From NCBI RefSeq assembly GCF_009708215.1, contig NZ_CP046175.1:558001-622000 (forward strand): 64,000 nt of DNA. Direction: 5' to 3'. Positions within the stretch are counted from its first letter, which is position 1. Every line of letters begins with the position of its first letter. Position numbers and translations under genes: made by a program. The stretch comes from Occultella kanbiaonis. Its GTDB lineage: Bacteria; Actinomycetota; Actinomycetes; Actinomycetales; Beutenbergiaceae. Below, piece by piece: positions 23,080 to 48,560 of this stretch. Under the pieces are notes generated by a model. That model was not told the origin of the DNA. It did no database searches and worked only from the letters and a program-made list of their open reading frames with translations.

Positions 23080-26000
23080 TCAGAGGCCGAGCAGGACCCT
23101 GCTGCCGCGGGCGCGCACGAGGGCAGCGGCGGCGGCGATGATCCGCGGGGCGAGCGTCGTGGAGACCCCGGGCAGGGTGGCGACCAGGGTGGGGTCGGCG
23201 CCGGCGAGCGCGACGACGTCCGGCACCCCGGCGGCCACCAGCGCCGCGGCCCGGGCCGGCCCGATGAACTCGACCTCCTCGAGGGAGGCCTCGACCATGA
23301 CCTCCGCGACCAGGGCCGGGCCGGTGGCCGGGGTCCGGGCCGGCAGTCGGAACATCGGGAGCGCGACCGCGGTCGGCTGCCCGCCGGCCCGGCCGACGAC
23401 CCGCCCACCGGTGCGCACCACGCCCGTGCCGCACGAGGTGCAGGTGCCCACCGAGACCGGCCGCCCCGCCGTCGAGATGGCCTGGGGCGCGCGGGGGACC
23501 GGCGCCGTCCGCCCGCAACCGCGGCAGTAGCAGGCCGTGCCGTCCTCGCTCGAGCCGGGCGGGGTCGGCGGGCAGAGCCCTTCCGGCGGGACCGGCGCGG
23601 GTGCGGTCGGTCCCTCCTCGAGGACCACGCCGACCCCGGTCAGGCTCACCTCGCCCGGGGCTTCGGATGCCAGGTACACCTCGACCTCGGTCGGCGACCC
23701 GAGCCGCAGGTGCAGGTCGGTGAGCGTGAGCGCGGCGCCGGGTGGCACCACGATCGCCAGGATCGCCTCCACGGCGCCGGCGGGGACGGTGCCGGTCGCG
23801 CCGTGGGCGTCCAGGTCGAGCTCGTCCACCTCGAGCACCACGGACTGCCCGACGGCGGTCGTCGCCTCGTCGGCGAACCGCACCTCGAGCCGTGCTCCCG
23901 GGGCGCCGGTCGTGACCGCCCGGAACGTCAGTTCGTAGGTGTCCCCGGCGCTCACGCCGACCACCTGCGCGAGCTCCGACGGCGCCGCGCCGCCGTTCGT
24001 GAACGTCGCCCCGCCGTCGGTCGGCGTGCTCGTCAGTGCCCCCGCCGCCACCGATTCCACCGGGCTCCAGGTGGTCCCGGCGACGTCGGCGGAGCCGGCC
24101 AGGCTGACGTCGTCGACGAGCAGGTAGGACTCGGCGGCATGGAAGCGCACCTCGGCGCTACGGGCGCCGGCCGGCGCGGTGAGGACGGCCTCGTGGTGGG
24201 GGACCCGCTCCAGGACGGACCGGTCGGCGGTGTCGAACACGCTCACCGGCACCCGGTCCACCCGCTCGACGCCGCAGGCGTCCCCGATCCAGCGCACCTG
24301 CGCGCTGGCCCCCTCGACCAGCGCGACGCCGTCGAACGCGAACCGGTACCGGGCGCCGCCGACGACCGGGACCACCTGCGCGAGCGCCGACTGGGCCACG
24401 GCGCCGGGCTTGGCGGTCTGCCTCAGCCCGGGAGCAGGAGCCGGCGCGGGAACCGGGGCCTGCCGCAGGGCCACCGGCCGGTCCCCGATCAGGGCCATCA
24501 GCCGCCCCGTCGGCAGCGCGATCGGGCGCACCTGGCCGGCGGTCAGCTCCCACTCCACCGGGACCGGGTCGCCGATCGTGATCAGCACGGCGGCGTCAGC
24601 GAACGGTCGGGTGAGCACGGCGTGGGTGCCGGGCGGGCTGACGGCGACGCCCGGGTCACCGTCGCCGGCCAGGGTGTAGCGGCCGGCGCTGGTGCGCCGG
24701 GCCGCGACGTCGAGCACCGTGACCGCGTCGGCGCCCACCACGACGGCGAGGCCACCCGTGGCGTCCAGGGCGAGCGCGCTCGCCGGCGAGTTCGGCCCGC
24801 CCACGCCGACCCGGGCGCCGACCTCGAGGTTCCCGGGGTCGAGGTAGCGCACCTGGGCCGCGGTCAGCACCAGGACCTGGCCCGGTGCGCACGCGACGCC
24901 GCGGGCGCCCTCGACGACGTCCGGCGTGGCCTCGCGGCGGTCGCCGACTCCGACGGCGGCGCGGTCGTCGTAGACGAACAGGTGGGTGACCTCGTCGGCG
25001 CCCGACGACGGCGACGGCGTCCGGGTGAGCACGGCGACGAGCCCGTCGATGCCGGTGGCCAGCGCGACCGGCACGCCGGGCACGTCGTCGGCCGGGATGT
25101 CCGCGGGCAACGGGCCCCCGGTGGCGGCCGCCTCGAGCAGGGCCCAGTCCAGGTGCCGGACCACGGTGCGCCGCCCGGACTCGGTGCTCGTCACGCCGGC
25201 CAGGTAGACGCCGAGGCCGTCGGCGGCCGGGGCCAGGTGCGTCACCGGGTCCGGCACCACGATCGGCTCACCGAGGGGCCGCCCGGTCGCGGCATCGACG
25301 ACCACCAGTGCGCCGCGCGTGACGCTGGAGGAGGACAGGCCAACCCCCCGCCGCGCATCGATCGAGACGATCAGGCGCCGCCCGCCCGGGTCGATCGCGA
25401 CGGCGAGCGGCTCGCCGGCGCCGAGGTCCGTGCGCAGCAGCCGACGGCGGGAGTACGTCTCGTAGGCGGTCAGGACGGCGACCGGCGCGTCGTCGACGAA
25501 CCGGTGGCCGACGACGAACACCTCCGCGCCGTCCGGGGCGACCACGGCCAGGTCCTGGGCCACCTCGGGTGCCCCGGACAGGCGCCCGGTCTCCACCGGC
25601 TGCTGCCCCACCCGGTACCACTGCCCGAAGTCACCGTTCGCGATCTCCTCGCCGGCGTCCGGACCGCCGCCCGCGGACGACAGCGCGGTGTTCAGCGCGT
25701 CGGCGACCTCCGGGAAGTCCAGCGAGAAGTCCACGGCGCCGGACGGGGCGAACCGCTGCAGCGAGACCGCCACCTCCTGCCCACCACCGCCCGCGCGCAA
25801 CTCCAGGGGCATCCGGAACCCGGTGGTCGCGTGCCGCAGCCGGAGCGCGGCGGCCGCACCGATCCCGGCCGCACCGACGGCACCGGCCGCACCGGCCGCA
25901 CCGGCACCGTCGACCGCCCGCCAGGACAGTCCGCCGTCGCGGGTCTGCTGCAGCGCCGGGCCGGGGAGCCCACCCTCGTCGGCGGGCCCCGGTGCGGCGC

Positions 26001-27183
26001 TCCACGCGGCGCGTCCGGCGGTCGCCTGCACCACCAGCCAGACGCGGCGGGCCGGCAGTTCCAGCTCCCCGGGCAGCGCCACGTTCAGCCAGGTCGGTGC
26101 GCCCGCCGTGTCCCGGTTGATCACCAGTTCCGCGGGTCGCGGGAGCAGGGCGGTGCGGCCGGGTTTGCCGTCGTCGTCGGCGAAGAGCCCGACGGCGAGG
26201 CTCGCCTGCGCGGAGACGGAGGTCACCAGCAGGTCGACGGACGTCGCGACGAGCGGCGCGGCCGGCGCCAGCGGCTGCGCCAGCGACCCGCCGGCTTCGA
26301 GGGCCACCAGGTCAACCGCCGCGGCCGCGGTCACCGGCCCGTGCACCACCTGGGTCGCGGCGAACGCCCCGAGCACCTGCCCGGTCGTGCCGGCGACCAC
26401 GGCGCCCGCCGGCACCGCGACGACCAGGCGACCTCCGTCGTCGGACGGGACGCCGTCGAACGCGTACTGCGCGCGCACGGTGCGCACCTGCGCGGGCGCC
26501 ACGGCGAGTGTGAACTCGACGTCGAGGGTGACGTCCAGGCGGGCGATCGAGTCCGAGTGCAGCACGAGTTCGAGCACGTGAGCGCCGTTGGCCACGGGCA
26601 GGCCGGGCAGCAGGGCCGTCACCACCTCGCTGAAGTCCGGGGTGGTGACGGAGGCGGTCAGGTCCCCGAAGTGGGACCAGAACACCGGACCGCCGGCGAC
26701 GGCGAGGGTGAGGTTGCTCGGTGGGGAAGCGACCCGGAGCACGGACACGTCCACCCCACCGGCGGGCACCCGCAGCCCGGTGACGCTCACCCCCGGCAGC
26801 TCGGTCGAGTTCGAGAGCTCGAACGCCGGGCCGTCGGTGAAGCCGCCGTTGGAGTCGAGGCCGAGGAACCCGCCGCCGAGGTCCACCAGCAGCGGCGCGC
26901 CGGCGAACCCGCTGCCGGTCAGCGACGCGAGCCGGCGCCGGGCGTGCAGGTCCACCTCGAGGGCGCCGGTGCCGACCACCTTCGACGCCCCCCACGAGCC
27001 CGGACCGGTCCCGGCGCCGAACGTCAACGACTCCAGGAACCGGCCATCGGCGTCGGCGCTGACCGGCGTGAGGGTGAGGGTGGCCCGGCCGAGCACGGCG
27101 CCAACGGGCAGCCGGCGCAGCACGAGGCGCCGGTCCCGCTCGAACGGCAGCAGCGCACCGGTGTGCCGTGCCTGCACGTGCAT
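23080..27183 (-). CDS. Giant CIS-associated protein with C-terminal zinc ribbon and helix-hairpin-helix-like domain
   Basis: A 1367-residue protein, last gene of the injection-system operon. Residues 1-1190 are beta-rich, low in Lys and Cys, with short Gly/Ala-rich linkers (near residue 430) and a middle part whose repeated hydrophobic strands (AVAIDPGGRRLIVSID, LALDATGGLAVVVGAD, VAVSPPGTHAVLTR) resemble beta-propeller blades. Around residue 1218 a zinc ribbon appears: CYCRGCG, then CTSCG 25 residues later. The last 65 residues (FIGPARAAALVAAGVPDVVA onward) resemble a helix-hairpin-helix DNA- or protein-binding fold. No match to a standard CIS part is recognised; position suggests a fibre, target-binding or cargo protein. 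The ATG at 27183 follows GGAGGT. No signal peptide is visible. Confidence 0.8.
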   Translation of the reverse strand: MHVQARHTGALLPFERDRRLVLRRLPVGAVLGRATLTLTPVSADADGRFLESLTFGAGTGPGSWGASKVVGTGALEVDLHARRRLASLTGSGFAGAPLLVDLGGGFLGLDSNGGFTDGPAFELSNSTELPGVSVTGLRVPAGGVDVSVLRVASPPSNLTLAVAGGPVFWSHFGDLTASVTTPDFSEVVTALLPGLPVANGAHVLELVLHSDSIARLDVTLDVEFTLAVAPAQVRTVRAQYAFDGVPSDDGGRLVVAVPAGAVVAGTTGQVLGAFAATQVVHGPVTAAAAVDLVALEAGGSLAQPLAPAAPLVATSVDLLVTSVSAQASLAVGLFADDDGKPGRTALLPRPAELVINRDTAGAPTWLNVALPGELELPARRVWLVVQATAGRAAWSAAPGPADEGGLPGPALQQTRDGGLSWRAVDGAGAAGAAGAVGAAGIGAAAALRLRHATTGFRMPLELRAGGGGQEVAVSLQRFAPSGAVDFSLDFPEVADALNTALSSAGGGPDAGEEIANGDFGQWYRVGQQPVETGRLSGAPEVAQDLAVVAPDGAEVFVVGHRFVDDAPVAVLTAYETYSRRRLLRTDLGAGEPLAVAIDPGGRRLIVSIDARRGVGLSSSSVTRGALVVVDAATGRPLGEPIVVPDPVTHLAPAADGLGVYLAGVTSTESGRRTVVRHLDWALLEAAATGGPLPADIPADDVPGVPVALATGIDGLVAVLTRTPSPSSGADEVTHLFVYDDRAAVGVGDRREATPDVVEGARGVACAPGQVLVLTAAQVRYLDPGNLEVGARVGVGGPNSPASALALDATGGLAVVVGADAVTVLDVAARRTSAGRYTLAGDGDPGVAVSPPGTHAVLTRPFADAAVLITIGDPVPVEWELTAGQVRPIALPTGRLMALIGDRPVALRQAPVPAPAPAPGLRQTAKPGAVAQSALAQVVPVVGGARYRFAFDGVALVEGASAQVRWIGDACGVERVDRVPVSVFDTADRSVLERVPHHEAVLTAPAGARSAEVRFHAAESYLLVDDVSLAGSADVAGTTWSPVESVAAGALTSTPTDGGATFTNGGAAPSELAQVVGVSAGDTYELTFRAVTTGAPGARLEVRFADEATTAVGQSVVLEVDELDLDAHGATGTVPAGAVEAILAIVVPPGAALTLTDLHLRLGSPTEVEVYLASEAPGEVSLTGVGVVLEEGPTAPAPVPPEGLCPPTPPGSSEDGTACYCRGCGRTAPVPRAPQAISTAGRPVSVGTCTSCGTGVVRTGGRVVGRAGGQPTAVALPMFRLPARTPATGPALVAEVMVEASLEEVEFIGPARAAALVAAGVPDVVALAGADPTLVATLPGVSTTLAPRIIAAAAALVRARGSRVLLGL

Positions 27184-27213: not shown

Positions 27214-28224
27214 TCAGACCTTCAGCAGGACCATCAGCTTCAGCTCGTTCTCGAACCGGCCGATGTTGTCGTTGCCGGGCAGGTCCTGGTCCGGGTCCAG
27301 CACCGGCTGGCTCGGGTCGTTGATGTAGGCCCGTGCGCGGGACTCGGGCCCGTCGTCCGCACGGTGCGGGGGCACGAACCAGAGCGCGGTCCGGTTGTTG
27401 TCCAGGTGCTGCACCCCCACGTTCGCCGGCCGCGCGAGCAGCCGCACGCCGTCGTTGCCGAACACGTTCAGCCCCGGGAAGTTGACCGTCTTGCGCGGGT
27501 GGCTGATGAACAGGATGTCGTCCCAGTCCCCGTTGTCCTTGAGCCGCTTCACGGACTGCTGCTCCTTGCAGCAGCGTTCGAACCAGGGCGAGCGGGCGTA
27601 CTGGTCGTCGCTGAACCGGTCGTTCGGAGCCGCGAAGAACGCCTGCCAGAACTCGGTCTCGAGGTCGTCGAGGCTCGAGGTGTCGGTGTAGGACACCTGG
27701 TACCGGGTGAGCATGTCCTTGAACGGGATGCCGACGTCCGGGCCGTCGGGTGGCTGGATGTCGATGGCGCGCCGGCCACCGGAGTTGTTCGGGACCCGGA
27801 CCCGGCGCTCCTCCGCCTGGCACAGGTAGAACGTGGCGAACGCGGCGCGGGTCTCGTCGTCCTCGCGGGCCGCCACCTCGAAGTATTCGAGCTGGTAGAG
27901 GTCCACGAGCGGCGGGGTGCCGAGCTCGTGCTCGATGACGGTGATGTCCCCGCCCTTGAGCACCTTGAACAGCTGCTGGTACCCGGTGCGCTCACGGACC
28001 TCGTCGAGGACCCGGCGGGCCACCTCCTCGGTGAGGGCGGCGATGTCCAGGCCGCCCACGTGGTGGGCGTCGTCGGCCGTCGCGACGTGGGTGATCGCCT
28101 CGGCGGCCGCGGCGGCCTGCGTTCGGATGTCCTCGTGGATCCTCACCTGCATGGTGTTCCATGCGTCAGCGGTGACGAGATCGCCGGGCTCCTGGGTCAC
28201 GTACGGGGGTGCTGTCTCGGTCAT
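27214..28224 (-). CDS. CIS tail-fibre/baseplate-associated protein (putative)
   Basis: A 336-residue protein. The N-terminal 60 residues (TQEPGDLVTADAWNTMQVRI, then helical Ala/Glu-rich sequence) resemble the start of phage fibre or neck-fibre proteins, where such a segment docks to the baseplate. The rest is mixed alpha/beta with RRAIDIQPPDGPDVGIPFKD and a C-terminal LKLMVLLKV. Function is inferred mainly from its place directly after the gpI-like gene, where fibre genes normally lie. The ATG at 28224 has GGAAGG six bases upstream; an ATG at 28230 touches that sequence and overlaps the previous stop (ATGA). Confidence 0.65.
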   Translation of the reverse strand: MTETAPPYVTQEPGDLVTADAWNTMQVRIHEDIRTQAAAAAEAITHVATADDAHHVGGLDIAALTEEVARRVLDEVRERTGYQQLFKVLKGGDITVIEHELGTPPLVDLYQLEYFEVAAREDDETRAAFATFYLCQAEERRVRVPNNSGGRRAIDIQPPDGPDVGIPFKDMLTRYQVSYTDTSSLDDLETEFWQAFFAAPNDRFSDDQYARSPWFERCCKEQQSVKRLKDNGDWDDILFISHPRKTVNFPGLNVFGNDGVRLLARPANVGVQHLDNNRTALWFVPPHRADDGPESRARAYINDPSQPVLDPDQDLPGNDNIGRFENELKLMVLLKV

Positions 28225-28226
28225 GA

Positions 28227-31200
28227 TCATCCTTCCTCTGCGGGTCGGTCCGGCACTGCCGGCACTGTGGGGCCACCGAAGCGAGCCCGGTCCCTGGTGA
28301 CGACGGCGCGGATCCCGGCCGCCTTGGCGGTGCCGACCCCGATCGGGGTCGGGTCGAGCAGACGTTCGGCGAGGGTGGGTGGCTCGGGTCCGGCGACCAC
28401 GGCGCGGGCGTTCTCGAAGCGGGCACCGGGCAGGTGCACGGTGACGTCGTAGATCTCCGGGCCGACCACGCGCATCGACACGCTGATGTCGTTGCCGTAG
28501 GCGCCCGGATCGGCCGCACGGACCTCGAGGAACCCGGGCGCCAGCCCCGGCCCGGAGACGTACATCCGGGCCGGCTGGGTCGGGGAGCCGAGACTCAGGT
28601 GAACCGGCTCCCGGAACGGGAGCGCCACGGGGCGCCAGCCGATCGGGACGGTCGGCGCCGGCGAGCACTCGATCAGGGCGGACTCGGCGTTCACCCGGGT
28701 GATGACGTTGTCGTCGTCGCCCAGCGGCTCGGTCACCACCCCGGCGATCAGTTCCGGCTCGGCCGCGCCGAACCTCGCCTCGCCGAAGGCTCGCCCGAAC
28801 CTGGGGTCGAGGTCCGCGGGCAGGTTCACCTCGAACGACCCGGCGGTGTGCGAGTCCCATGTCACGCTCACGTGCGCGCTCGCGGGGCGGTCCGCCGTCG
28901 CCGTGAACCGGGCCGGTACGGCGGTCGGGGAGAACCGGCTCACGTCGAACACCGCGTCCTCCACGCAGGGGCCACCGGCGAAGGAGTCCTCGTCGAAGAT
29001 CGCCTCGTCGAACCGGGCCGCGTCGCACTCGGTCCAGCTCCACCGGTTCCGGCCTCGGCGCACGGTGAGCGGACCGAGCGGGCCGTGCCCGCCGCCGGTG
29101 CTCACGTGGATCAGGGCCGGGTCCACGGGGTGCCACCCGGACGGTCCGCGCACCCGTGCGCCGATTCCGCCCGGCGCCCATTCCAGGACGAGTTCGCCGC
29201 GGGCCGGCACGGTGGTGTCCACGTGCACCGACCACCCGGCGGCCGGGTCGGTCAGCCGAGGTCCGTGCACGCCGCCGGGGGAGTCCACCCGCACCCGGCC
29301 GGGCACGTCCGCCGAACCGGACGAGGAGAAGACCAGCACCCCGCCGTGCGCGACGGCCGCGGTCACCGTGTCCGTGCTGGGCGGGTACTCGACCACCTCG
29401 AGGTGACGGGTCGGCACCACCTCGACGGCGCCGCCCGGCCCGGTCGTCGGGGACGTCAGCACGAGCCGGTCGGTGGGGCCGAGCGCGGCCACCCCGGGGG
29501 CCACCGACTCGATCGCGGCGACGATCTCGGCGCCGAGCGTGGCCGACGGCGTCACTCCGGCCAGGTCCGCGTCGACCGGTTCGCCGTGGTCGAGGCGCAG
29601 CCGAAGCACCGAGCGTTCGGTCAGGTCGACCGGTGCGAGCAGGTCCACCTCGCCATCGATCGTGGCCGGGGTGGGGTCGGTGCCGGTCACCGATGGGCCC
29701 ACGGCGCCGAACAGCAGCGGCGCGGCGTCGCCGACCTCCGCGCGGGTCACCTCGAGCCGGCTCGCCGGGCCCGTGGTCGGGGAGGTCAGGGCGAGCGCGA
29801 GGCCGCCGGGGATCGGCACGCTCGCCGCGTCGGCGGTGGTGGCCGCACGGATCGCCGCGGTGATCGCCGCGAGGTCGACGATGCCGGCGCCGCCGGGACC
29901 GGCGCCGCCGCCCGGAGCACCCGAGGCGGAGGTGAGGTCGATGTCCACCGGTGCTCCGCCGTCGACCCGGAGCCGGAGCAGGCGACGCGTACCCAGGTCC
30001 GCGCCACCGGTGAGGTCGACCGTGCCGACCACCCGGGCGGCGGTCGCAGCCAGGCCGGTGTAGGTCCGCGGCGCGGGGATGCCCAGGACCACCGGGGTGG
30101 CGTCGGTGCCGGCGGCGGGCGCCTCGATCACCAGCGCGCTGCCGCCGCCGACGGTCGGGGAGGTGAGCAGCACGTGGGCGCCGTCGTGGGCGGCGACCGG
30201 GGCGCCGAGGGCGACGTTGATCTGGGCGCAGATCCGGGCCAGGCCGAGGGTGGCCGGGGTGGTGCCGTCGCCGAGCGGGACGTCCACGGGTGCGGCGCCG
30301 TCGACTCCGAGCCGCAGCGCCGCGTCGGCGGGCAACGGCGCGCCGTCGCCGAGGTCCACGGTGCCCGTGAACCGGACGCCGGCGGGGCCGGTGCCGGTGA
30401 CGGACCCGACGGCGGCGGCCCCGAGGACCTGATCGGCGGCGTCCAGCGGATGCGGCGGTTCGAGCGCCACCCGGGACGCCGCGCCCTGGGTCGGGTCGAG
30501 GAGCACCACCGTGCGCCCGTCGGTGCTCACCTCCAACCCGGGGACGCCGTCGGCCAGGTGCTGGGCGATCTCGGCGGCGGTGGTGGCGCGCGGGCGAGGC
30601 CCGGCGCAGTCCACCTCGACGGCGCCGGAGTCGCCGACCACGACCCGTAGGAACGATCCGCCGGTCAGGTCGATCCCGCCGGACAGGTCGGTGCTCGTGG
30701 CCAGCCGCGCGGACGTGCCGGGCAGCCCGTGGGCGGTGCGGGCGGTGAAGCCGAGCACCGTGGTCGCCGCCTCGTCGAGGACCCGGGCCCGGGTCACGAA
30801 CCGGCGCCGCACGGTGGTGACGATCGGGTCCACCTCGAGCGATCCCGCGGCACCCGCGGTCGGCGAGGTCAGGATCAGGTGGGTGCCGTCGTCCCCGGCG
30901 ACCGGGTCCTCCTCGGCGCCGAGGGCGGCGTTGACCGCGTCCGCGAGTTCGCCGACGTCGGCGGCGGTCACGTCCGCCACCCCGGCGCGCAGGTCGATCT
31001 CGACCGGCTCACCACCGTCCACGGCGAGCCGGAGCAGGTTCCGGGAGGAGAGGTTCAGCCCACCGGCGAGGTCCGCGGTGCCGGTGAGGTTCGCGGTCAC
31101 CTGCGCGGCGCCGCGACCGGACCGGGGCCGCAGCCCGAGCACGTCGAGCGCGGCGTCGCCCTCGACCTCCTCGATGCGCAGCACCGCGGTCGGGCCCTCG

Positions 31201-32600: not shown

Positions 32601-34197
32601 CGGCGTCCTCCGTGGCGACGTCGGCAGGCGTCATGTCGAGCGCGATCCACCACTGCTCACCGGAGACCTCGGCGCGGACGGCGAACGTGCCGGCTTCGAT
32701 CTCGGCGTCCGTCGCCGGTTCGCCGGCGCGGTCGGGTGCCGTGGAGAGGAGCAGGGACCGGTCCGGGATCCGGCCGGTGGTGGGTGCGTTCACCCCGGCC
32801 GTGGCCACCGAGGCGGCGAGTGCGGCGCGCAGGGCCGCGTCGTCGGAGCCGTCCGGCAGCAGCTGGACCGCCTGCACCAGGGCGTCGACGAGCCCGGCGT
32901 CACCCTCCGGCCCGGCCAGGTCCGCGCGTGCGACCACGACGTCCACGATGGTCGCCTCCTGCACGTCGGGGACGGCGCGGATCGCGGCGAGCAGGGTGGC
33001 GCCGTCGGCCGCCTCGCCCCGGGTGAGCCCGTCCACGTACGCCGCGGCGGCGGCGACGATGTCCGCGCGCACCTGCTCCTGCCCGGGGCCGGACAGCCCC
33101 GCCGTGATGCTCGCGCGCACCCGGGGGCTGATGAACACGTACCGGGCCACCAGGGTGGCAACCACCCCGGCCGCGCGGGTGGCGTGCACGGCGTCGGTGA
33201 GAGAGGGCAGCCGCTCGGGCTCGGCGTCGACCACCACGGTGACCGTGCCCGGCTCGGAGCGGGACCCGAGCGGTGAGTTCGGGTCGAAGAACTCCACCGG
33301 CGTGCCGCGGCCCTCCCGGATCACCCGGTCGAGCGCGGCCAGGGTCGCCTTGCCGAGCGAGCGCAGCGCAGCCTTCGCGCGGGTGCGCAGCTCGTCGTCG
33401 GTCTCGTCCGCGGCGGCCCGGATGGTCGGGTCGAGGTTGCTGACGTTCTCGATGCCGGCGATCGGCTGGGTCATCTCGGAGATCGCGCCGGCGGCCACGA
33501 GGCCGTCGTCCCCCGCGAACGCCACATCCGCGCGGATCGGGGCGTCGATGCGGACCTGCCCGGTCTGCAGGGTGCGCGGCTGGGTGGTGGTGAACACCTT
33601 CGCGTCGGCGGTGGCCAGACGGGTGCCGGCCGGGATGTTGATGTTGCCGTCCACGCCCGCGGCGCGGAAGAACGTGGCGAGCCCCTCGGCGAACTCGGCC
33701 GTCTTGCGGGTCACCCCGAGGATCGCGACCACGTAGTCCAGCGAGGTCCCGGTCGCGGTGTCCACGAAGGCGGAGAGGTAGGCGAGGTTGATCTGCTGGT
33801 AGACGACGGCGATCTCGCGGCCGATGGCCTCCGTGAGGGTGCGGGTCACCGATCCGACGTTGATGTCGGAGAGCGGGGATCGGGTATCCAGGCGGAAGTA
33901 GTCGACGTAGAACGTGGACTCGTCGTCCGGGTGGGTGCCGTCCTCGAGCCAGATCACATTGTTCGTGGCGGTCCCGCTGAACGTGAAGTCGATCGCGAGC
34001 AGGAACGTGCGCGGCGCCCCGCCGGAGGTGCCGGTGATGCCTCGGATGCCACCGGCCGGCTCGGCGAGCGGGTACGTGCCGATCTTGAGGTCGAAGACGA
34101 TCGGCTCGTTCACGACCCCGCCGACCACGGAGGTGAGGATGTCCCCGACCAGGTCCCCGTACGGCCGGTTGACGAGGTTGACCACGTCCTCGTTCAT
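32593..34197 (-). CDS. CIS baseplate wedge protein, gpJ/gp6 (Pvc11) type
   Basis: A 534-residue baseplate J-like protein. The core has IREGRGTPVEFFDPNSPLGS, GTVTVVVDAEPERLPSLTDA and VARYVFISPRVRASITAGLS, which match the conserved J-like fold, and a helical N-terminus (VNRPYGDLVGDILTSVVGGV) that contacts the inner baseplate. The INIPAGTRLATADAKVFTT strand is also typical. With gp25 and gpI it builds the baseplate wedges. The ATG at 34197 overlaps the gp25 stop (ATGA). Confidence 0.9.
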   Translation of the reverse strand: MNEDVVNLVNRPYGDLVGDILTSVVGGVVNEPIVFDLKIGTYPLAEPAGGIRGITGTSGGAPRTFLLAIDFTFSGTATNNVIWLEDGTHPDDESTFYVDYFRLDTRSPLSDINVGSVTRTLTEAIGREIAVVYQQINLAYLSAFVDTATGTSLDYVVAILGVTRKTAEFAEGLATFFRAAGVDGNINIPAGTRLATADAKVFTTTQPRTLQTGQVRIDAPIRADVAFAGDDGLVAAGAISEMTQPIAGIENVSNLDPTIRAAADETDDELRTRAKAALRSLGKATLAALDRVIREGRGTPVEFFDPNSPLGSRSEPGTVTVVVDAEPERLPSLTDAVHATRAAGVVATLVARYVFISPRVRASITAGLSGPGQEQVRADIVAAAAAYVDGLTRGEAADGATLLAAIRAVPDVQEATIVDVVVARADLAGPEGDAGLVDALVQAVQLLPDGSDDAALRAALAASVATAGVNAPTTGRIPDRSLLLSTAPDRAGEPATDAEIEAGTFAVRAEVSGEQWWIALDMTPADVATEDADA

Positions 34198-42089: not shown

Positions 42090-42506
42090 TCAGGGCTTGA
42101 GCGAGTTCAGGTGGGTGGTGATCGCCGTGATCAGGTCCAGCAGCTCGGTCTTGACCTGGTCCACCGACGGCAGCCCGGTGACCACCGACGCGACGTCCGC
42201 GATCGACTCGATGGCACCGGTCTCACCGGGCAGGATCTTCTTCGCGGCATCCAGGAACGCCGGGATCTTCCCGGTGAACTCGGCCACCTCGCCCAGGCCC
42301 GGGATGGCGCCGACGTCGAGGTTCTGGATCTCGGTCTTGAGCTTGTTCATCAGCTCGACGAGCAGGTCGATGAGCTCGGTGACCTGCGGCACCAGGGACG
42401 CGATCGCCTGGATCGCGGGCTTGATGGTGGCCACGTTGTCGTCGAGGAACGACTTGAAGTCGGCGAGCACCGCCTTGAGTTCCTCGAAGAGGTTCGGTTC
42501 GGCCAT
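42090..42506 (-). CDS. Small helical CIS-associated protein
   Basis: A 138-residue protein, nearly all amphipathic helix, with heptad-like Leu/Ile/Val spacing (FEELKAVLADFKSFLDDNVA, TELIDLLVELMNKLKTEIQ). It has one Pro/Gly-rich turn (GAIPGLGEVAEFTGKIP). It lies between two genes that share an adaptor domain. Function unknown; a short coiled-coil scaffold, or a cargo or assembly factor, is possible. It is too short to be a conventional tape measure for a contractile tube. Confidence 0.75.
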   Translation of the reverse strand: MAEPNLFEELKAVLADFKSFLDDNVATIKPAIQAIASLVPQVTELIDLLVELMNKLKTEIQNLDVGAIPGLGEVAEFTGKIPAFLDAAKKILPGETGAIESIADVASVVTGLPSVDQVKTELLDLITAITTHLNSLKP

Positions 42507-42556: not shown

Positions 42557-43099
42557 TCAGCCGCCGGTGGCTTCCCGGAACGCGCGCAGCCGCTCGAGGA
42601 GACCGGTCAGCGGCGTCACGAACGCCTCGAGGCCGGTGGCGAACGGCGGCGTGATGTCGAGCCCGTCGAGGAGGTCGCCGAGCAGGTCGTCGGCCTCGCC
42701 GAGGATGTCCGCCTCGAGGGCGGCGGTGGACGCCGGCGCGACGGGCTCGGTGAACTCGCGCAGGGTGAGCACGTAGGCGAACGCGCCCGGCCGCCCGGCC
42801 AGCTCACGGACCTGCAGGTCGTCCACGAGGACCTCCTCGACGGAGGTGTCCGCAGTGATGTCCGCGACGAACGCGACCGGTTCCCCGGTGCGGACCTGCG
42901 CCTTCAGCTCCTCGATGAGGGTGGCGGCGGCGGTGTCCGTGGCGACCCCGCGCACCCGCACCCCGGTAGGGGCCCGGCCGAGGTTCTGCAGCATCGACCC
43001 GTCCTTGCCCACGGCCTGGTGCTCGGCGACGGCACGCAGGTCGCTGGTGGTCAGGTCCTGCACCTGCGGCAGTTCGAGGGTGCCGAGCATCGGTCGCAT
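42557..43099 (-). CDS. CIS adaptor-domain protein (homologous to N-terminus of the 1343-aa protein)
   Basis: A 180-residue protein. The first 120 residues match the start of the 1343-residue protein: RPMLGTLELPQVQ, then EPVAFVADITADTSVEEVLV, then VRELAGRPGAFAYVLTLREF. This type of domain resembles P2 gpU-like or DNA-circulation-protein N-terminal domains of phage tails, which is a family guess and not certain. The rest is helical and acidic. In PVC-type loci the Pvc7 protein (LysM-bearing) lies at about this position; no LysM motif is visible here. It starts one base after the stop of the disordered protein gene. Confidence 0.75.
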   Translation of the reverse strand: MRPMLGTLELPQVQDLTTSDLRAVAEHQAVGKDGSMLQNLGRAPTGVRVRGVATDTAAATLIEELKAQVRTGEPVAFVADITADTSVEEVLVDDLQVRELAGRPGAFAYVLTLREFTEPVAPASTAALEADILGEADDLLGDLLDGLDITPPFATGLEAFVTPLTGLLERLRAFREATGG

Positions 43100-43100: not shown

Positions 43101-44570
43101 TCACGCCTCGATCCCGTGCCGGCGGGCCGCATCGGTGAGCATCCGGGCCACCAGCCGTTCGAGCTCGGGCACCGAGGTGGCCGGGACCGACCCGCCGACG
43201 CCGGGGGCCGCCGAGCTCTCGGTGGCCGTCGCCGGACCGGCCGGCCAGGTGGCCGGCCACCCGTGCTCGCCACCCTCGGTCTCCTCCGCGTCCCCGGCGA
43301 GCCGGACCAGCCGGGCCGGGCGCGTGGGTGCGATCGCGAACTCCGCCTGCGGGTCGAGTCCGTGGGCGGCGGTCCGCGCCTGCGGGGCGGCGTCGGGTCC
43401 CTCCTGCGCGGGCCGGCCGCCGAGCGGCGCACCGGGGCTCGTGGCCTGCGTCGGTCCGACGGCGGAGGTGCTCGGGTGGTCGTCGTCGCCGCTCGTGCGG
43501 CGTGGGTCGCTGCGCTCACGCGCCGGCCCGACGGCGGGTCCCGGCTCGGCGGATCCGTTGCCGTTGCGGGCGTTGCGCCACTGACCCGCCCCCCGGGTCA
43601 GTGACGCAGCCAGCGCGAGGGCATCCGCCGCGGAGGCCCGGTGCAGCGGCCGGCGGGAGGTCGCCACGGGGTCGGCGAGGGCGGCGAGCCCGGCCGCGGC
43701 GAGGCCGGCCCGGACCCGCTCGAGCACGTGGTCCAGACCCGCGACGGGCGGCAGGTGGCTCGCGGCGGTCCCGGACCGTGCGGGGTGTTCCCGGGTCGGG
43801 TGGGGGCGGCGTGGGTGGGCCGGGCGAGGGCGCAGTCCTGCGGGCCCGGGCGGCTGGGATCGCCGGTCCGCGGCGTCGGGCCCGGCGAGTTCGCGCAGCC
43901 GGGTGGCCGGCGGGCACGCGTCCGGCGGCGGCAGCGGGCCGAGGTCACCGGGCGTGCGACCTGCCTCGGCACCGGGGCGACGCGGCCCGGGTGCTCCGGC
44001 GCCGGGAGACCGGTCGGTGCTCGGCGCGGCCGGGTCCGGGGCGGCGTGGTTCCCGGCGGCAGGCCCGCGTCCGGGGTCGGCCACCGCGCCGCCCGGGGTC
44101 CACCGGTCCGGTCCGTGCGGCCGGCCCGTGGCGCCGCCGCGACCGGGCCCGAACGGGTCCTCGGACGACCCACCCACCACACCCGGCGAGCCCCGCCCCG
44201 GGCGAGCTCCGCCGTCGTCAGCAACGCCCGAAGGGCGCCAGCGCTCCCGCCGGCCGCCGGCCCCGGGGTCGCCTCCGCCGTCGTCCGGCCCTGCGACGCA
44301 CTGCGCGAGGGTGCGGCCCAGCATGGGGCCCTCCGCGAGGCGGGGCGGCGCCGGGGCGGCCGCGCACGCGGCGCCGACCCGCGCGTCGAGGACGTCGACG
44401 GACCGGGTCAGCCGGGCGGTGTCCCGGCACCATGCGGCCGGACCGGCGCCACCGGCCAGGTGCCCGAGCGTGCCGCCCACCCGGGGCAGCACGCCGCTCA
44501 TCCGGGGCAGCCCGCCACCACCGCCGGCAGCGGGTCTCCCGGCGGTGGACGGTGCCCGGCCGGTGCTCAT
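43101..44570 (-). CDS. Disordered Pro/Gly/Arg-rich CIS-associated protein
   Basis: A 489-residue protein. Most of it (residues 40-420) is low complexity: Gly, Pro, Ala and Arg dominate, with few hydrophobic runs apart from LAGPD-type islands and a helical part near 290-345 (GLDHVLERVRAGLAAAGLAA, LHRASAADALALAASLTRG). A second organised segment closes the protein (VPELERLVARMLTDAARRHG). It overlaps the chaperone-like gene (ATGA). The position after the tube and chaperone genes is where phages place the tape measure, but the composition does not fit one. Because both strands are open over much of this GC-rich stretch, coding in this frame rests on the overlap with both neighbours. Confidence 0.65.
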   Translation of the reverse strand: MSTGRAPSTAGRPAAGGGGGLPRMSGVLPRVGGTLGHLAGGAGPAAWCRDTARLTRSVDVLDARVGAACAAAPAPPRLAEGPMLGRTLAQCVAGPDDGGGDPGAGGRRERWRPSGVADDGGARPGRGSPGVVGGSSEDPFGPGRGGATGRPHGPDRWTPGGAVADPGRGPAAGNHAAPDPAAPSTDRSPGAGAPGPRRPGAEAGRTPGDLGPLPPPDACPPATRLRELAGPDAADRRSQPPGPAGLRPRPAHPRRPHPTREHPARSGTAASHLPPVAGLDHVLERVRAGLAAAGLAALADPVATSRRPLHRASAADALALAASLTRGAGQWRNARNGNGSAEPGPAVGPARERSDPRRTSGDDDHPSTSAVGPTQATSPGAPLGGRPAQEGPDAAPQARTAAHGLDPQAEFAIAPTRPARLVRLAGDAEETEGGEHGWPATWPAGPATATESSAAPGVGGSVPATSVPELERLVARMLTDAARRHGIEA

Positions 44571-45022
44571 GCGACCTCCGCCGCCCGCCCGGTCATCTCC
44601 AGATACATCAGGATCTGCCCGATCGTCATCCCGGCGACGTCCTCCGCCGTCCAGCCGAACTCCTCGGCGAGCACGAAGCACGCCTTCGCCAGCGGGGCCT
44701 GGACGAGCTCGGCGAGCCGGTCCCGGGGGGTCTCGATGCCGCTCAACTCGTTGATCGCGTCCACCAGCACCCGGGCCAGCCCGGCCGGCAGCCGGCCGGC
44801 CTGCTCGGCCGTGAGGGCGGGCTCCACCAGGGCACGGGCGATCATCAGCCCGGCCGCCAGTTCGCGGTCCCCGGCGGCGGCATGCGCCACCAGCTGGACG
44901 TCGCGCACGGTCAGCGGGCGGATCGTCACGGTTCCGGCGGGGCCACCGGGCGGCAGCGTCACCTCGTGGGTGAGCGCGCTGCCGGCCAGCAACTCCTCGG
45001 CGGTCAGGGCCGTGCGTGCCAT
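44567..45022 (-). CDS. Tail-assembly-chaperone-like CIS protein
   Basis: A 151-residue protein of mostly helical sequence. TVTIRPLTVRDVQLVAHAAA resembles phage tail assembly chaperones (gpG/gp14-type), and the C-terminal GWTAEDVAGMTIGQILMYLE recalls the short motif found after it. It lies directly after the tube gene, the normal site of this protein in phages and many CIS loci. It may help in building the inner tube. The ATG at 45022 is 13 bp after the tube stop. Confidence 0.65.
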   Translation of the reverse strand: MARTALTAEELLAGSALTHEVTLPPGGPAGTVTIRPLTVRDVQLVAHAAAGDRELAAGLMIARALVEPALTAEQAGRLPAGLARVLVDAINELSGIETPRDRLAELVQAPLAKACFVLAEEFGWTAEDVAGMTIGQILMYLEMTGRAAEVA

Positions 45023-45035
45023 CGCGGTGCTCCGT

Positions 45036-45590
45036 TCACTCGGTGGCGAACGCGACCTCGGTGGGCGGAGCCTCGCCGCCACCGCCGCCGGCGCCCTCGC
45101 GGTCGAGGACGCGGATGGTGAGTGCCCGGAACCGCAGGTTCTCCACCACGAAGTCGTCCTCGGGCAGGGTGTAGCGCCAGTTCTCGAACTTCACCCCGGC
45201 GATCTCCAGGGTGAGCGAGTTGCCCGGGTGCGCCGGGTCCGCCAACACCAGGTTGATCGTGAAGGCGGGCTGCACGTACGGCTCGGCCACCGCCGTCGGG
45301 GCTGATCCGCGGCCCATCAGCAGCAGGAGCAGCGCCCCGTTGACGTACGCGCGGCCGACCGTGCCCGCGATGTGGATGTCGCCCGGGCTCAGGGACACGG
45401 GGTGGCGCCGGCCGACCTCGTAGAACTCCTTGAGCGCGGTGTCCACGCACACCCGCACGTCGGTGAGCCGGCCGACGGTCTGGATCGCGAACGTGTCAAC
45501 CACGGCGGACGCGTCGGCGCCCTCCGGGGTGTCCTCGGCGGCCAGCGTGAGCGTGCCGTGGTTTCCGGTGAATACCTCTGTCAGTGCCAT
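45036..45590 (-). CDS. CIS inner tube protein
   Basis: A 184-residue protein, the right size for a tail tube or Hcp-like subunit. It is beta-rich: FTGNHGTLTLAAEDTPEG, PVSLSPGDIHIAGTVGRAYV, LTLEIAGVKFENWRYTLPED, DFVVENLRFRALTIRVLD. Such paired strands with one helix (YVNGALLLLLMG) fit the tube fold. It follows the sheath gene, as usual, and the Shine-Dalgarno AAGGA lies next to the sheath stop codon. The last 20 residues are a Gly-rich tail. Sequence similarity to known tubes is modest, so the call rests partly on position. Confidence 0.75.
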   Translation of the reverse strand: MALTEVFTGNHGTLTLAAEDTPEGADASAVVDTFAIQTVGRLTDVRVCVDTALKEFYEVGRRHPVSLSPGDIHIAGTVGRAYVNGALLLLLMGRGSAPTAVAEPYVQPAFTINLVLADPAHPGNSLTLEIAGVKFENWRYTLPEDDFVVENLRFRALTIRVLDREGAGGGGGEAPPTEVAFATE

Positions 45591-45600
45591 GTCGGGGTCC

Positions 45601-47271
45601 TTACTCGAGGAACATCGTGACCTTGATGAAGTCGATGCTGAACGTGGGCCGCAGGAAGATGTCGACCCGGGCGATGCCCCGGATCTCGTCGTCACGGGTG
45701 GCGTGCACGTCCAGCCGGTAGCCGTTCTCGGAGGCGAGGAGCTCGTCCAGCACCATCGAGTTCAGGAAGTTGTTGATGGTGGCCCGCAGCGCGCCGCGGA
45801 CCCGTTCGTTGTTCAGCAGGCCGATGTAGGGGGTGGCGGCGCTGCGGACGCCGAACTTCGCGTAGTCCACGATCCGGCGGGTGGTGATCTGCTGCCACGC
45901 CGTGTTCGTGGACGTGGTGATGCCCCGCACCAGCCGCAGGCCCTGCCGCTTCTCGACGGCGAGCACCCGGCTCAGCACCAACTGCTTCAGCTCGGCGCTG
46001 GACAGGTCGTGCTCGAGCGCCTCCACTCCGAGGACCTTGTTCGTCAGGGAGATGTGCGGCGCCTGCGCGGACAGCAGGCCCGCGACGGCGGCTGCCGTGT
46101 ACGCGCCGGGCAGCGTCACCTTCGCCGGTGGGCTGACCGACCGGTCGTCGGCGACGAAGCCGGGGCCGACCAGGACCACCCGGTCGCTGTTCAGGGCGTG
46201 CCCGGACGCGTTCTGCACGAACGCGGCCCGGTCGTCTTCGAGTGCGGTGCCGACGATGCCGATGCGTTCCCGCTTGTTGTCGTCGTTCGAGGCGAGCGCG
46301 CAGTGCAGGGCGAGGTCGTCGCCGAACGTCGCGTCGGTCTGGCCGGCGCCGACGATGATGTGCGCGTCGACCGCGAGCAGGGCGTCGAGGCCACCGGCGT
46401 GCAGGGCGCCGGTGGGATCCCCGGCGCCGTTCGCGCCGCCGCCCATCGGGGTCGCCGCGAGGGTGCTCGGCACCTCCGCGGGGTTCGCCAGTGCCGTGGC
46501 CGTGACGAGCGCGGAGTCGGCCAGGTCGGCGACCAGGTCGTCGCCGGAGACCACGTTGTACTCCTCCTTCGCGCTCACCCCGAGCGTGACCGTGACCTTC
46601 ACGGCGGACGCCTTGTCGACCATGTAGGTGGCCAGCACGGTGTCACCGGCGGCGGGATCGGTGCCGAACGTGAGGGTGCCGTCCGCCGTCGTGACGCCCA
46701 CCTGGGTGGGGCTCGGAGCGGCGTCGTAGACGATCGGGACCACGGTGTCCGAACCGCCGCCGCCCGGTCGCACCACGATGCGGTTCACCGCGCTGTGCAG
46801 CACCTCGGCGTGGGCCAGCACGAACGGGGGACCGGCCACGGTCTCCTCGCGGACCAGGGCGCTCGCGTCGGCCGTGGAGACCGCCACGGTGAGCCCGTTC
46901 GCCCAGGTGCCCGGCCAACGCGCGTCGACGCGCACGCACGGACCGGTCGCAGAGTCGAGGTCGAGGCCGGCCGTGGCGACGGCGCCCGGATCGGCCACCC
47001 GCACGGCCCACACGCTGGTGGCACCGAACCGGTAGGCCTGCTCGAGGGCGCGGGTCAGGGTGAGTTCGTCGTTGGTGCCGCCGTGCCACGGGTCGTAGGC
47101 GCCGAAGGTGGCGAGGGCGTCGCTGTAGCTGCCGAGCAGGCGGGGCGTGCCCACCGGCCCCTTGGCTGCGGTGCCGACCACGCCGAGGTTCCCGACGGTG
47201 ATCGCCCCCGGGACGATGAGGCCCTCGGGGCGCACTTCGATGAAGACGCCGGGTAGGACTAGTTCGGTCAT
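45601..47271 (-). CDS. Phage-tail-like contractile sheath protein
   Basis: A 556-residue sheath. The N-terminal VLPGVFIEVRPEGLIVPGAI and LGVVGTAAKGPVGTPRLLGS are typical of the sheath attachment domain, and the C-terminal GLRLVRGITTSTNTAWQQIT, then RRIVDYAKFGVRSAATPYIG and RVDIFLRPTFSIDFIKVTMF, of the conserved sheath core that forms the interlocking mesh. The middle (residues 130-330) holds a variable outer domain. It starts with ATG at 47271 after a strong AAGGAG eight bases upstream, fitting high expression. The 65 bp before it also contain a small stem (CGCTCC/GGAGCG). Contraction of this polymer drives the spike into the target. Confidence 0.95.
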   Translation of the reverse strand: MTELVLPGVFIEVRPEGLIVPGAITVGNLGVVGTAAKGPVGTPRLLGSYSDALATFGAYDPWHGGTNDELTLTRALEQAYRFGATSVWAVRVADPGAVATAGLDLDSATGPCVRVDARWPGTWANGLTVAVSTADASALVREETVAGPPFVLAHAEVLHSAVNRIVVRPGGGGSDTVVPIVYDAAPSPTQVGVTTADGTLTFGTDPAAGDTVLATYMVDKASAVKVTVTLGVSAKEEYNVVSGDDLVADLADSALVTATALANPAEVPSTLAATPMGGGANGAGDPTGALHAGGLDALLAVDAHIIVGAGQTDATFGDDLALHCALASNDDNKRERIGIVGTALEDDRAAFVQNASGHALNSDRVVLVGPGFVADDRSVSPPAKVTLPGAYTAAAVAGLLSAQAPHISLTNKVLGVEALEHDLSSAELKQLVLSRVLAVEKRQGLRLVRGITTSTNTAWQQITTRRIVDYAKFGVRSAATPYIGLLNNERVRGALRATINNFLNSMVLDELLASENGYRLDVHATRDDEIRGIARVDIFLRPTFSIDFIKVTMFLE

Positions 47272-47336: not shown

Positions 47337-48560
47337 TCAGCGGGACAGCCGCAGATAGACGACGGCGGTCTGGTCCAGTCCCGGGCTCGCGCCGGGCGGG
47401 GTGTAGGTGATCTCGAAGCGCTCGCCGGCGGCGAGCAGGATCGGTGCGGTGAGCCGGCGGGCCGCGCCGGAGTAGGCGTCGACGGTGCCGTCGGTGTCCC
47501 AGTCGCCCAGGTCCGGGCCGGGGACGGCGGGCCCGAGGGCGGCGAGCGCGGCCGCGGGCGTGAGCGTCACCGTCGCGTCGCGGTGCGTCGGGACGGCACC
47601 CCCGACGGCGGTGAGGAAGCCGTCGAGGTCGGCGAACGCCGTCGGGACGGCTCCCGACCTGCGCGCGAACGTGACCGTGCCGCCGAGGACGGGCCCCGGG
47701 ACGTATGCGATCGCTGCGATGGTGCCGACCGCCGTCGGGCCGGTGACGTTGAGCGCGGGGGCGGCCTCGTCGTCCCAGCGGCGCAGCTCGTCGACGATCG
47801 TCTGGGCCTCGCTGGTGGGCGCGGCCTCGTCGCCGTGGCCGGTCGTCACCGGGATCCGGGCGATCAGGGAGTCCGCGTCGTCGTCGGCGGTGTAGCGGTA
47901 CTCGTAGAGGACGTCGTAGCTGGAGGCCTTGCGCCACGCGGGCAGGACCGGGATGTGCTCGGCGATCGTGGTCTCGCTGGCGGCGAACCTCAGGAACCCC
48001 TTTGCGCGCAGCGCGTCCTGGTCGTCGAGGAGCGTGGACTGCAGGCCGAGGACGGCGGCGTCCACCTCGGGGGAGGAGGTGGCCCACAGCTGAAACCGCA
48101 CCCGTGCGTCCAGCCGGCCGCCGCGCAGCGTCCGGGTGCCGAGCGCGGGCGCACCCTCGGTGCCGATGTGGTCGCCGAGGCCGACCGGCTTGGCGGTCAC
48201 CTGCTCGATGGTCACGTTGCCGTCGGGCACGCCGGGCAGGGGCGCCGGCAGCCGGGCCCCGAGGGCGCCCAGCATCGCGGTGACCACGTCGGTGAGGGTC
48301 GGGGCGCTCACGTCGGACCCCAGGGTGGGCAGGTCGAGACCATCGGCGCCGGGCCCGACGTCGCTCGTGAGGGCCAGGTCCACGGCGCGCGCGATCTCAC
48401 CGGAGTGGTGCCAGCCGGTGCGGGTGCCGGTCTGCACGTCGGTGACGATCCCGTGCCAGCGCGGGCCCGCCCCGGGAGCGTCCTCGAGCAGCGCGCGGAC
48501 CAGGAACGACCGCGCGACGAGATTCGTCTGCGCCCCGCCGACCTGCTCGTGTCCGGACAT
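47337..48560 (-). CDS. First gene of the CIS operon, unknown function (possible tail-terminator-like)
   Basis: A 407-residue protein. The N-terminal 110 residues (VARSFLVRALLEDAPG, WHGIVTDVQTGTRTGW) are mixed. The middle (TDVVTAMLGALGARL, RLDARVRFQLWATSSPEVDA, YEYRYTADDDADSLIARIPV) resembles tail terminator/tail completion proteins that cap the sheath and tube. The last 150 residues are beta-rich and Ala/Pro-rich, ending in a strand pair (RFEITYTPPGASPG, TAVVYLRLSR). It is the first gene on the minus strand, divergent from the SARP regulator, and 65 bp ahead of the sheath. Similarity is weak, so the terminator idea is only a guess. GGGGAG lies about 13 bases before the ATG. Confidence 0.75.
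   Translation of the reverse strand: MSGHEQVGGAQTNLVARSFLVRALLEDAPGAGPRWHGIVTDVQTGTRTGWHHSGEIARAVDLALTSDVGPGADGLDLPTLGSDVSAPTLTDVVTAMLGALGARLPAPLPGVPDGNVTIEQVTAKPVGLGDHIGTEGAPALGTRTLRGGRLDARVRFQLWATSSPEVDAAVLGLQSTLLDDQDALRAKGFLRFAASETTIAEHIPVLPAWRKASSYDVLYEYRYTADDDADSLIARIPVTTGHGDEAAPTSEAQTIVDELRRWDDEAAPALNVTGPTAVGTIAAIAYVPGPVLGGTVTFARRSGAVPTAFADLDGFLTAVGGAVPTHRDATVTLTPAAALAALGPAVPGPDLGDWDTDGTVDAYSGAARRLTAPILLAAGERFEITYTPPGASPGLDQTAVVYLRLSR

What the first reader, a model, noticed from the sequence alone, without database searches (positions are those of the whole stretch)
23080..48560. A 16-gene contractile injection system lacking the usual AAA+ ATPase and tape measure
The order, read on the minus strand, is: unknown 407-aa protein, sheath, tube, chaperone-like, disordered 489-aa protein, adaptor, helical 138-aa protein, 1343-aa OmpA-containing protein, unknown 336-aa protein, gp27-like hub, gp5-like spike, PAAR-like tip, gp25, gpJ, gpI with repeats, fibre-like protein, 1367-aa protein. 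Extracellular CIS loci normally carry a Pvc15-type AAA+ ATPase, a tape measure and a Pvc16 cap. None is recognised here, nor any integrase, capsid, terminase or holin. Three proteins above 1300 aa have no counterpart among standard CIS parts. This is either a divergent lineage of CIS or a system with split or relocated assembly genes.
Basis: partly seen in the sequence, partly recalled or inferred. Interest (0 to 1): 0.87.

Follow-up and report, generated by a model that had tools for sequence, protein, structure and literature searches.

The report
ATPase-free contractile injection machine
This bacterium carries, besides a standard one, a second spring-loaded protein syringe of an apparently undescribed type that lacks the motor protein such syringes usually have, and whose relatives carry exchangeable enzyme genes that look like cargo.

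Summary
The block is real: 17 co-oriented genes (23080-48560, minus strand) encode a contractile tail in an Occultella-like genome. The same order recurs in relatives from Actinobacteria, Acidobacteria, Proteobacteria, Chloroflexi and Cyanobacteria (22 other genomes, two seen only as short fragments). None of 24 stretches read from 21 genomes holds a CIS-type ATPase, Pvc16 cap domain or DUF4157-like motif. It is not a split system: this genome has a separate canonical CIS at 5.60 Mb with its own ATPase and cap, and 10 of 22 other hosts have neither marker in their assembly.

Phage-type counterparts of the 'missing' parts are probably present: a possible terminator before the sheath, a tail-assembly chaperone (split at an A9 run in sister loci) and a 138-aa helical protein where Chloroflexi sister loci have tape-measure-like proteins of 1,124-1,215 aa.

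A slot before the hub gene varies between relatives: tyrosinase, subtilase, phospholipase D, HEAT-like proteins. Tyrosinases and subtilases there share a C-terminal tag whose strong matches in 24 host genomes are all slot enzymes. I read it as a phage-style, ATPase-independent CIS with interchangeable payload. Assembly, tail length and cargo loading are untested, and the window's own slot protein lacks the tag.

The parts
47337..48560 (-). c1, 407 aa, first gene; candidate tail terminator (cap)
   Evidence: Conserved before the sheath in 20 mapped loci. No Pfam or PDB match. 3 of 18 members weakly match PHROG tail terminator (best E 0.026). Not aligned to Pvc16. Fold from one sequence uninformative (pLDDT 35.5).
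45601..47271 (-). c2, 556 aa, tail sheath
   Evidence: Phage_sheath_1C over cut-off; PHROG tail sheath E 5e-37; nearest solved sheaths are phage, R-pyocin and related.
45036..45590 (-). c3, 184 aa, putative tail tube
   Evidence: Position after the sheath; conserved in 18 aligned members; no significant family or PDB match.
44567..45022 (-). c4, 151 aa, tail-assembly-chaperone-like
   Evidence: Weak Pfam and PHROG chaperone matches; homologues in four sister loci lie in two frames joined at an A9 run.
43101..44570 (-). c5, 489 aa, disordered protein with conserved ends, function unknown
   Evidence: Same position in 19 loci, 406-609 aa, C-terminus (A/Q)RRxGI(D/E/N)x; no family match.
42557..43099 (-). 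c6, 180 aa, baseplate-hub adaptor-like
   Evidence: Weak matches to DUF6046, DNA_circ_N and PHROG baseplate hub; paralogous to the c8 N-terminus.
42090..42506 (-). c7, 138 aa, helical; candidate miniature tape measure
   Evidence: 129-155 aa in 20 loci. Weak PHROG tape-measure/tail matches (E 0.009-0.09). Sister loci have 1,124-1,215-aa proteins at this place.
38019..42050 (-). c8, 1343 aa: c6-like domain, OmpA and peptidoglycan-binding domains, long variable C-terminus
   Evidence: OmpA and PG_binding_1 over cut-off; N-terminus paralogous to c6; conserved in the family.
37012..38022 (-). c9, 336 aa, occupant of the variable slot between c8 and the hub gene
   Evidence: No family match; homologues in 5 other mapped loci; other loci have enzymes or HEAT-like proteins here.
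35956..37008 (-). c10, 350 aa, baseplate hub (gp27/GPD type)
   Evidence: Phage_GPD below cut-off; PHROG hub E 1.7e-9; VgrG-related E 3e-14.
35153..35959 (-). c11, 268 aa, spike (gp5/VgrG type)
   Evidence: Phage_base_V over cut-off.
34795..35130 (-). c12, 111 aa, PAAR-like tip
   Evidence: Position; 63-79% identity in most non-Occultella loci; a PAAR-like ORF takes its place in one locus (by eye). No family match.
34194..34694 (-). c13, 166 aa, gp25-like sheath initiator
32593..34197 (-). c14, 534 aa, Baseplate_J wedge
   Evidence: Baseplate_J over cut-off; PHROG wedge E 2e-33.
28227..32600 (-). c15, 1457 aa, gpI-position protein with internal repeats
   Evidence: Position after J; repeats seen by pattern; no family match.
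27214..28230 (-). c16, 338 aa, fibre-like protein
   Evidence: Conserved in 17 aligned loci; no family match.
23080..27183 (-). c17, 1367 aa, large distal protein with C-terminal HHH domain
   Evidence: HHH_5 over cut-off; weak PHROG tail match; found in 19 ORFs of the mapped loci.
48914..49876 (+). Divergent BTAD/SARP-type regulator, probable regulator of the operon
   Evidence: BTAD over cut-off; a homologue lies beside the operon in 7 other loci, 4 of 4 scanned are BTAD.

Best explanation
The operon encodes a complete contractile injection particle of a CIS lineage that assembles like a phage tail and needs no AAA+ ATPase. Shown by sequence: sheath, hub, spike, gp25 and J wedge; gene order kept in other genomes; no CIS-ATPase, Pvc16 or DUF4157-like motif in the loci. 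Inferred: c4 chaperones a tape-measure protein (c7, about 138 aa) onto c6 and the hub; tube and sheath polymerise on the baseplate; c1 terminates the tail; c8, an adaptor domain fused to OmpA and peptidoglycan-binding domains, joins the baseplate and grips a cell wall, of the target or of the producer; c15-c17 are wedge extensions and fibres. The slot before the hub gene encodes an exchangeable payload or payload adaptor; in several relatives it is an enzyme whose C-terminal tag would dock it on the particle. Contraction drives spike, tip and payload through an envelope. With no lysis gene recognised and no clear membrane segment, release probably depends on cell death, or the particle acts inside the producer.
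For: Operon and family matches. Synteny in 21 mapped genomes of five phyla. ATPase and Pvc16 found in 7 of 9 comparison loci but in 0 of 24 family and 0 of 6 sister stretches, apart from one generic 56-bit hit at a contig edge. 10 of 22 hosts lack both markers. Strict DUF4157-like motif in 4 ORFs of 3 of 9 comparison loci and in none of the family or sister ORFs. Frame-split chaperone at A9 in 4 sister loci. Long tape-measure-like proteins in the Chloroflexi sister loci. Slot enzymes; shared tag, E 3e-6 to 7.5e-6 either way, five strong hits, all slot enzymes, in 24 genomes, 1 of 400 Chloroflexota. Four enzymes checked lack an N-terminal hydrophobic stretch.
Against: No particle has been seen. 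Tube, cap and tape measure are not supported by significant matches. c1 does not align with Pvc16. The c7 profile matches the long proteins only weakly, with no significant single stretch, and not the 1,215-aa ones. The window's own slot protein has no tag, nor have the phospholipases or the Geoalkalibacter subtilase; four of the five strong tag hits built the profile. Some c8 and one J gene are broken in relatives. Most genomes lacking the markers are incomplete. In Occultella the ATPase of the second CIS could in principle act in trans.
Confidence: 0.72

Rival explanations
1. R-type-tailocin-like killer: a domesticated phage tail that kills bacteria by puncturing the membrane, without protein cargo.
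For: Phage-like gene order, no ATPase; the sheath profile matches phage and R-pyocin sheaths among solved structures.
Against: No lysis gene recognised among the 17 proteins and 12 flanking proteins; a PAAR-like tip; spread over five phyla; slot with unrelated enzymes sharing a tag.
Confidence: 0.14
2. Producer-anchored or wall-anchored machine working like a T6SS or the cytoplasmic Streptomyces CIS, held on peptidoglycan by c8.
For: OmpA and peptidoglycan-binding domains in c8; no lysis gene recognised; no clear membrane segment, so it would stay in the cytoplasm until the envelope opens.
Against: No membrane complex or ClpV-type protein recognised; c8 has no obvious signal peptide, so the wall it meets may be that of the target.
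Confidence: 0.1
3. Incomplete eCIS that borrows ATPase and cap from the canonical CIS at 5.60 Mb.
For: Own genome and 12 of 22 other hosts also carry canonical markers.
Against: 10 of 22 hosts lack both markers, three of them isolate genomes of 6.5-9.6 Mb; the operon keeps its form with or without them; sheaths lie far apart.
Confidence: 0.03
4. Prophage remnant or tail module of an active phage.
For: Myophage-like gene order and chaperone.
Against: A pattern scan of IMG/VR found no J relative; no sheath match in 50,697 phage records; J matches there cover at most 63% at under 60% identity in the rows listed (15 of 74); metabolic and transport flanks.
Confidence: 0.01

Closest known systems
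Afp/PVC-type eCIS (PLTS), including the Streptomyces and Anabaena CIS
   Same: Sheath, hub, spike, PAAR-like tip, gp25, J wedge; wide distribution; no lysis genes recognised.
   Different: No AAA+ ATPase, no Pvc16, no DUF4157-like effector; separate hub and spike genes; distant sheath.
Streptomyces davawensis CIS group (PMC11126660; one section and passages read)
   Same: Spread over Actinobacteria, Proteobacteria and Chloroflexota; a peptidoglycan-binding protein in the cluster.
   Different: That group is defined by a long Tme effector with DUF4157. Two lookalike loci here (2,103-2,112-aa ORF; my inference, strain not identified) have ATPase and Pvc16 and match only the sheath N-terminus of this family.
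R-type tailocins (pyocin, diffocin)
   Same: Phage-tail assembly without ATPase.
   Different: No lysis cassette recognised; PAAR-like tip; OmpA/peptidoglycan-binding protein; variable enzyme slot.
Myophage tails of Mu/P2 type
   Same: Order sheath, tube, chaperone, (c5), N-like adaptor, hub, spike, W, J, I (comparison recalled).
   Different: No head genes recognised; tape-measure-position protein only 138 aa; exchangeable enzyme genes.
Type VI secretion system
   Same: OmpA-type peptidoglycan-binding domain; no large tape measure.
   Different: No ClpV or membrane complex recognised; one sheath gene instead of two (T6SS features recalled).

Membership tests
eCIS/PLTS (Afp/PVC type) | AAA+ ATPase in the cluster (PMC4122934: always present) | tested here: not met
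   0 of 24 family stretches except a generic 56-bit edge hit; 7 of 9 comparison loci positive.
eCIS/PLTS (Afp/PVC type) | Pvc16/Afp16 cap | tested here: not met
   No Pvc16 match in family stretches; c1 does not align with Pvc16. A distant homologue is not excluded.
eCIS/PLTS (Afp/PVC type) | DUF4157-type effector nearby (common, not universal) | tested here: not met
   Strict motif pattern, 0 family ORFs, 4 comparison ORFs.
eCIS/PLTS (Afp/PVC type) | gp25, J wedge, hub/spike, tip | tested here: met
   the tip by position and similarity only.
R-type tailocin | Phage-type tail without AAA+ ATPase | tested here: met
R-type tailocin | Holin/lysin cassette | tested here: not met
   None recognised in 17 + 12 proteins.
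R-type tailocin | Tape measure protein of tail length | tested here: inconclusive
   Only c7 (138 aa) or the disordered c5 could serve.
T6SS | ClpV ATPase and TssJLM membrane complex | tested here: not met
   No such family match in the 17 proteins; no clear membrane segment.
S. davawensis-type CIS | Long DUF4157-bearing Tme gene | tested here: not met
   No strict DUF4157-like motif in family ORFs; c8 is not of that kind.
Contractile injection system (broad sense) | Forms a sheathed particle that contracts | not testable with these tools
   Needs electron microscopy.

The most novel reading that the evidence does not exclude
A separate class of cellular injection machine: ATPase-free, with a tape measure shrunk about eightfold, so that the contractile tail is a stub of roughly 20 nm (138 residues at 1.5 A each, a recalled rule) or has no molecular ruler, and which carries interchangeable enzymes (tyrosinase, subtilase, phospholipase D), some docked by a C-terminal tag, instead of DUF4157 signals and a loading ATPase. 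It has spread over at least five bacterial phyla.
Probability: 0.3. Interest if true: 0.88.

Novelty: new variant of a known kind. Interest (0 to 1): 0.72.

Why it matters
An AAA+ ATPase has been called a fundamental feature of Afp/PVC-like systems (PMC4122934, passages), and surveys filter in ways that would drop this lineage: one excluded clusters with Cis13 and Cis14 but no Cis15 (PMC12210884, passages), another required at least ten core genes including Afp12, 13, 14 or 16 (PMC8213781, passages). A conserved lineage without the ATPase asks what the ATPase is for (in PVC it helps load effectors, PMC11495950, abstract start in a listing), suggests another way to dock cargo, and makes tape-measure control of tail length directly testable. 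A particle with fewer parts and modular enzyme cargo is also of technical interest.

Tried and rejected
Rejected: relocated or borrowed ATPase; prophage or phage tail; the thylakoid CIS of Anabaena, whose genes are numbered by homology to AFP and include Cis16 caps (PMC8894136, passages), while the four cyanobacterial hosts with a Pvc16 match here (G437, G438, G441, G442) have it on another contig than the operon; the S. davawensis group. My first idea that c5 is the tape measure, because it follows the chaperone, was dropped: Chloroflexi sister loci have both a c5-position protein and a long tape-measure-like protein.

Led nowhere: c1 against Pfam, PDB and Pvc16; c1 fold from one sequence; c7 against PDB gives generic helical proteins; tube and c6 against PDB; tRNA and Rfam scans empty; a second structure job (c9) was never accepted. 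Nine paper searches showed no description of this lineage in the listings; only open-licence papers are held, lists are capped, and Chen et al. 2019 (dbeCIS) was not read, so absence from print is not proven.
Full report
Observation. The window lies in a 5.65-Mb single-contig genome at 558001-622000. Two genomes of the same genus (G001, G002) have contigs of the same length as the named records of Occultella aeris and O. gossypii, so the genus is very probably Occultella (Ruaniaceae). On the minus strand 17 genes run from 48560 to 23080 with spacings from -8 to +100 bp. All 17 have orthologues in both relatives (76-100% identity; c17 cut by the fetched stretch). A third genome of the genus, G003, has no match to the sheath.

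Parts. Sheath, spike, J wedge, and the OmpA, peptidoglycan-binding and HHH domains pass Pfam cut-offs. Hub and gp25 match several tail families. Chaperone (c4) and adaptor (c6) rest on weak matches. c1, c3 (tube), c5, c9, c12, c15 and c16 have no significant family match. The c8 N-terminus is paralogous to c6 (42% over about 120 residues).

Distribution. One scan of a one-genome-per-species collection with a J-protein alignment gave 23 loci in 22 genomes: Actinobacteria (Occultella, Kribbella, Actinopolymorpha, Frankia, Blastococcus), Acidobacteria, Proteobacteria (among them Paraglaciecola, Yoonia) and a Geoalkalibacter MAG, Chloroflexi and Cyanobacteria. Two of the 22 are short fragments (L061/L074, L069). 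I mapped 24 stretches from 21 genomes, window included; the order of the recognised genes is the same wherever the contig reaches, with c12 not recognised in two Chloroflexi loci and insertions in some. The system is rare: in 394 genomes of the class, Frankia and the own genome match strongly and 11 weakly; 3 of 292 Cyanobacteria and 6 of 400 Chloroflexota match at E <= 1e-30, search centres and one weaker row (G765) included. In a six-gene tree of 20 genomes a 98% branch sets Frankia and Blastococcus apart from the other Actinobacteria, which suggests horizontal transfer; several inner branches are weak (16-56%).

ATPase and cap. The own genome has one Pvc16_N match, one CIS-type ATPase of 694 aa and a second sheath, all within 5.596-5.602 Mb, with a DUF4157-like ORF beside them: a separate canonical CIS. 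Of 22 other hosts, 12 have a Pvc16 match (11 over cut-off), and the same 12 have an ATPase match of 187 bits or more; the other 10 have no Pvc16 match and no ATPase match above 72 bits. Of these 10, Actinopolymorpha alba, Kribbella catacumbae, Paraglaciecola and Frankia are not labelled MAGs; the Frankia assembly is 87% complete (as G292). In the loci themselves the ATPase query gives one 56-bit hit at a contig edge among 24 family stretches and none in 6 sister stretches, against 199-1341 bits in 7 of 9 comparison loci, which also have Pvc16 (three of the seven Pvc16 queries came from comparison loci). The two negative comparison loci, G266 and G216, fall on the ATPase-less side of the sheath tree; G216 is cut about 1.6 kb after the sheath.

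Assembly. In three near-identical Chloroflexi loci and one cyanobacterial locus the two halves of c4 lie in different frames that meet at a run of nine A, as in the frameshifted tail chaperones of lambda and P2 (recalled). The Chloroflexi sister loci have a 1,124- or 1,215-aa protein right after c6; these match PHROG tape-measure families (E 7.6e-6 and 5.3e-8; the best match of the 1,124-aa one is a family called tail protein, phrog_1204). A 1,102-aa protein of G266 does not match a tape-measure family. In the main family that place is held by c7, 129-155 aa in 20 loci. c7 weakly matches tape-measure and tail families, phrog_1204 among them, and its profile weakly matches two long proteins (E 0.007 and 0.017, no significant single stretch). 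c7 may thus be a shrunken tape measure; homology is not proven. Three of 18 c1 members weakly match a tail-terminator PHROG.

Payload slot. Between c8 and c10 the loci differ. Tyrosinase: Oscillatoria, Anaerolineales. Subtilase: Anaerolineae by Pfam, Ardenticatenaceae by similarity to it, a gammaproteobacterial MAG by eye. Phospholipase D: Phormidesmis by Pfam, G1066 by eye. HEAT-like: Paraglaciecola and Promineifilum over cut-off, Frankia below, Blastococcus as relative of Frankia. c9 family: three Occultella, Kribbella, Actinopolymorpha, Geoalkalibacter. Yoonia has an unmatched 249-aa protein, A14 a 119-aa ORF; Acidobacteria, SKS4, Myxacorys and Leptolyngbyaceae show no clear occupant. Elsewhere: a subtilase between spike and tip in Geoalkalibacter, a glycosyltransferase between tip and gp25 in Myxacorys and a GH5 cellulase after c17 in Blastococcus. 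The two tyrosinases and two subtilases end in a similar segment of about 54 residues. A profile of either pair finds the other pair at E 3e-6 to 7.5e-6 among 10,821 ORFs. In 24 host genomes the tag has 5 strong hits, all slot enzymes; four built the profile, the fifth is independent (E 3.5e-14); a sixth, weak hit lies in c8 of Paraglaciecola. Among 400 Chloroflexota genomes only the known one matches at E <= 1e-5; judging by the handles this is the draw, so the five other sheath-bearing genomes there lack it. Four enzymes checked (two tyrosinases, a phospholipase, the Geoalkalibacter subtilase) show no N-terminal hydrophobic stretch. This fits cargo docked by a tag; it does not show it, and the window's slot protein lacks the tag.

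Context. A BTAD/SARP-type regulator is divergent from the operon (48914-49876); homologues lie beside the operon in 7 other loci, and 4 of 4 scanned are BTAD proteins. Recognised flanking genes are metabolic, transport and regulatory.

Literature. Passages of PMC4122934, PMC8213781, PMC12210884, PMC11126660 (one section whole), PMC8894136, PMC12998442, PMC10598620 and PMC12923769 and the abstract of PMC13277306 describe no such lineage; filters of two surveys would have removed it.

Verdict. A divergent, ATPase-independent CIS lineage with phage-style assembly and a variable payload slot: a new variant of a known kind, its mechanism partly inferred.

Noticed in passing
Own genome G000:C1, about 5.580-5.602 Mb (L038, L039): A second, canonical CIS with sheath, ATPase, Pvc16 and a DUF4157-like ORF; a 1,184-aa disordered protein follows its tube-like ORFs.
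   Followed up: partly
12 of 22 other host genomes, plus the own genome: Hosts of this lineage often also carry canonical CIS markers; no background rate was measured.
   Followed up: no
L181, L183, L185 (G1017, G814, G846): Sister loci with a sheath of about 359 aa that lacks roughly residues 92-292 of the family sheath.
   Followed up: partly
L187:9562-12129 (G1066): An 855-aa YD-repeat (RHS-like) protein, read by eye, sits between the long tape-measure-like gene and c8.
   Followed up: partly
L044, L045, L156 (G266) and L189 (G765): More distant contractile-tail loci without CIS ATPase or Pvc16 match; whether they are prophages was not examined.
   Followed up: no
L071, L108, L121: c8 is split over several ORFs in Leptolyngbyaceae, Acidobacteria and Myxacorys, and J over three ORFs in Leptolyngbyaceae: decay, draft errors or real splitting.
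   Followed up: no
window 53524-56877 (minus): A 1,117-aa ORF with no Pfam match; it may be the antisense of another gene.
   Followed up: no
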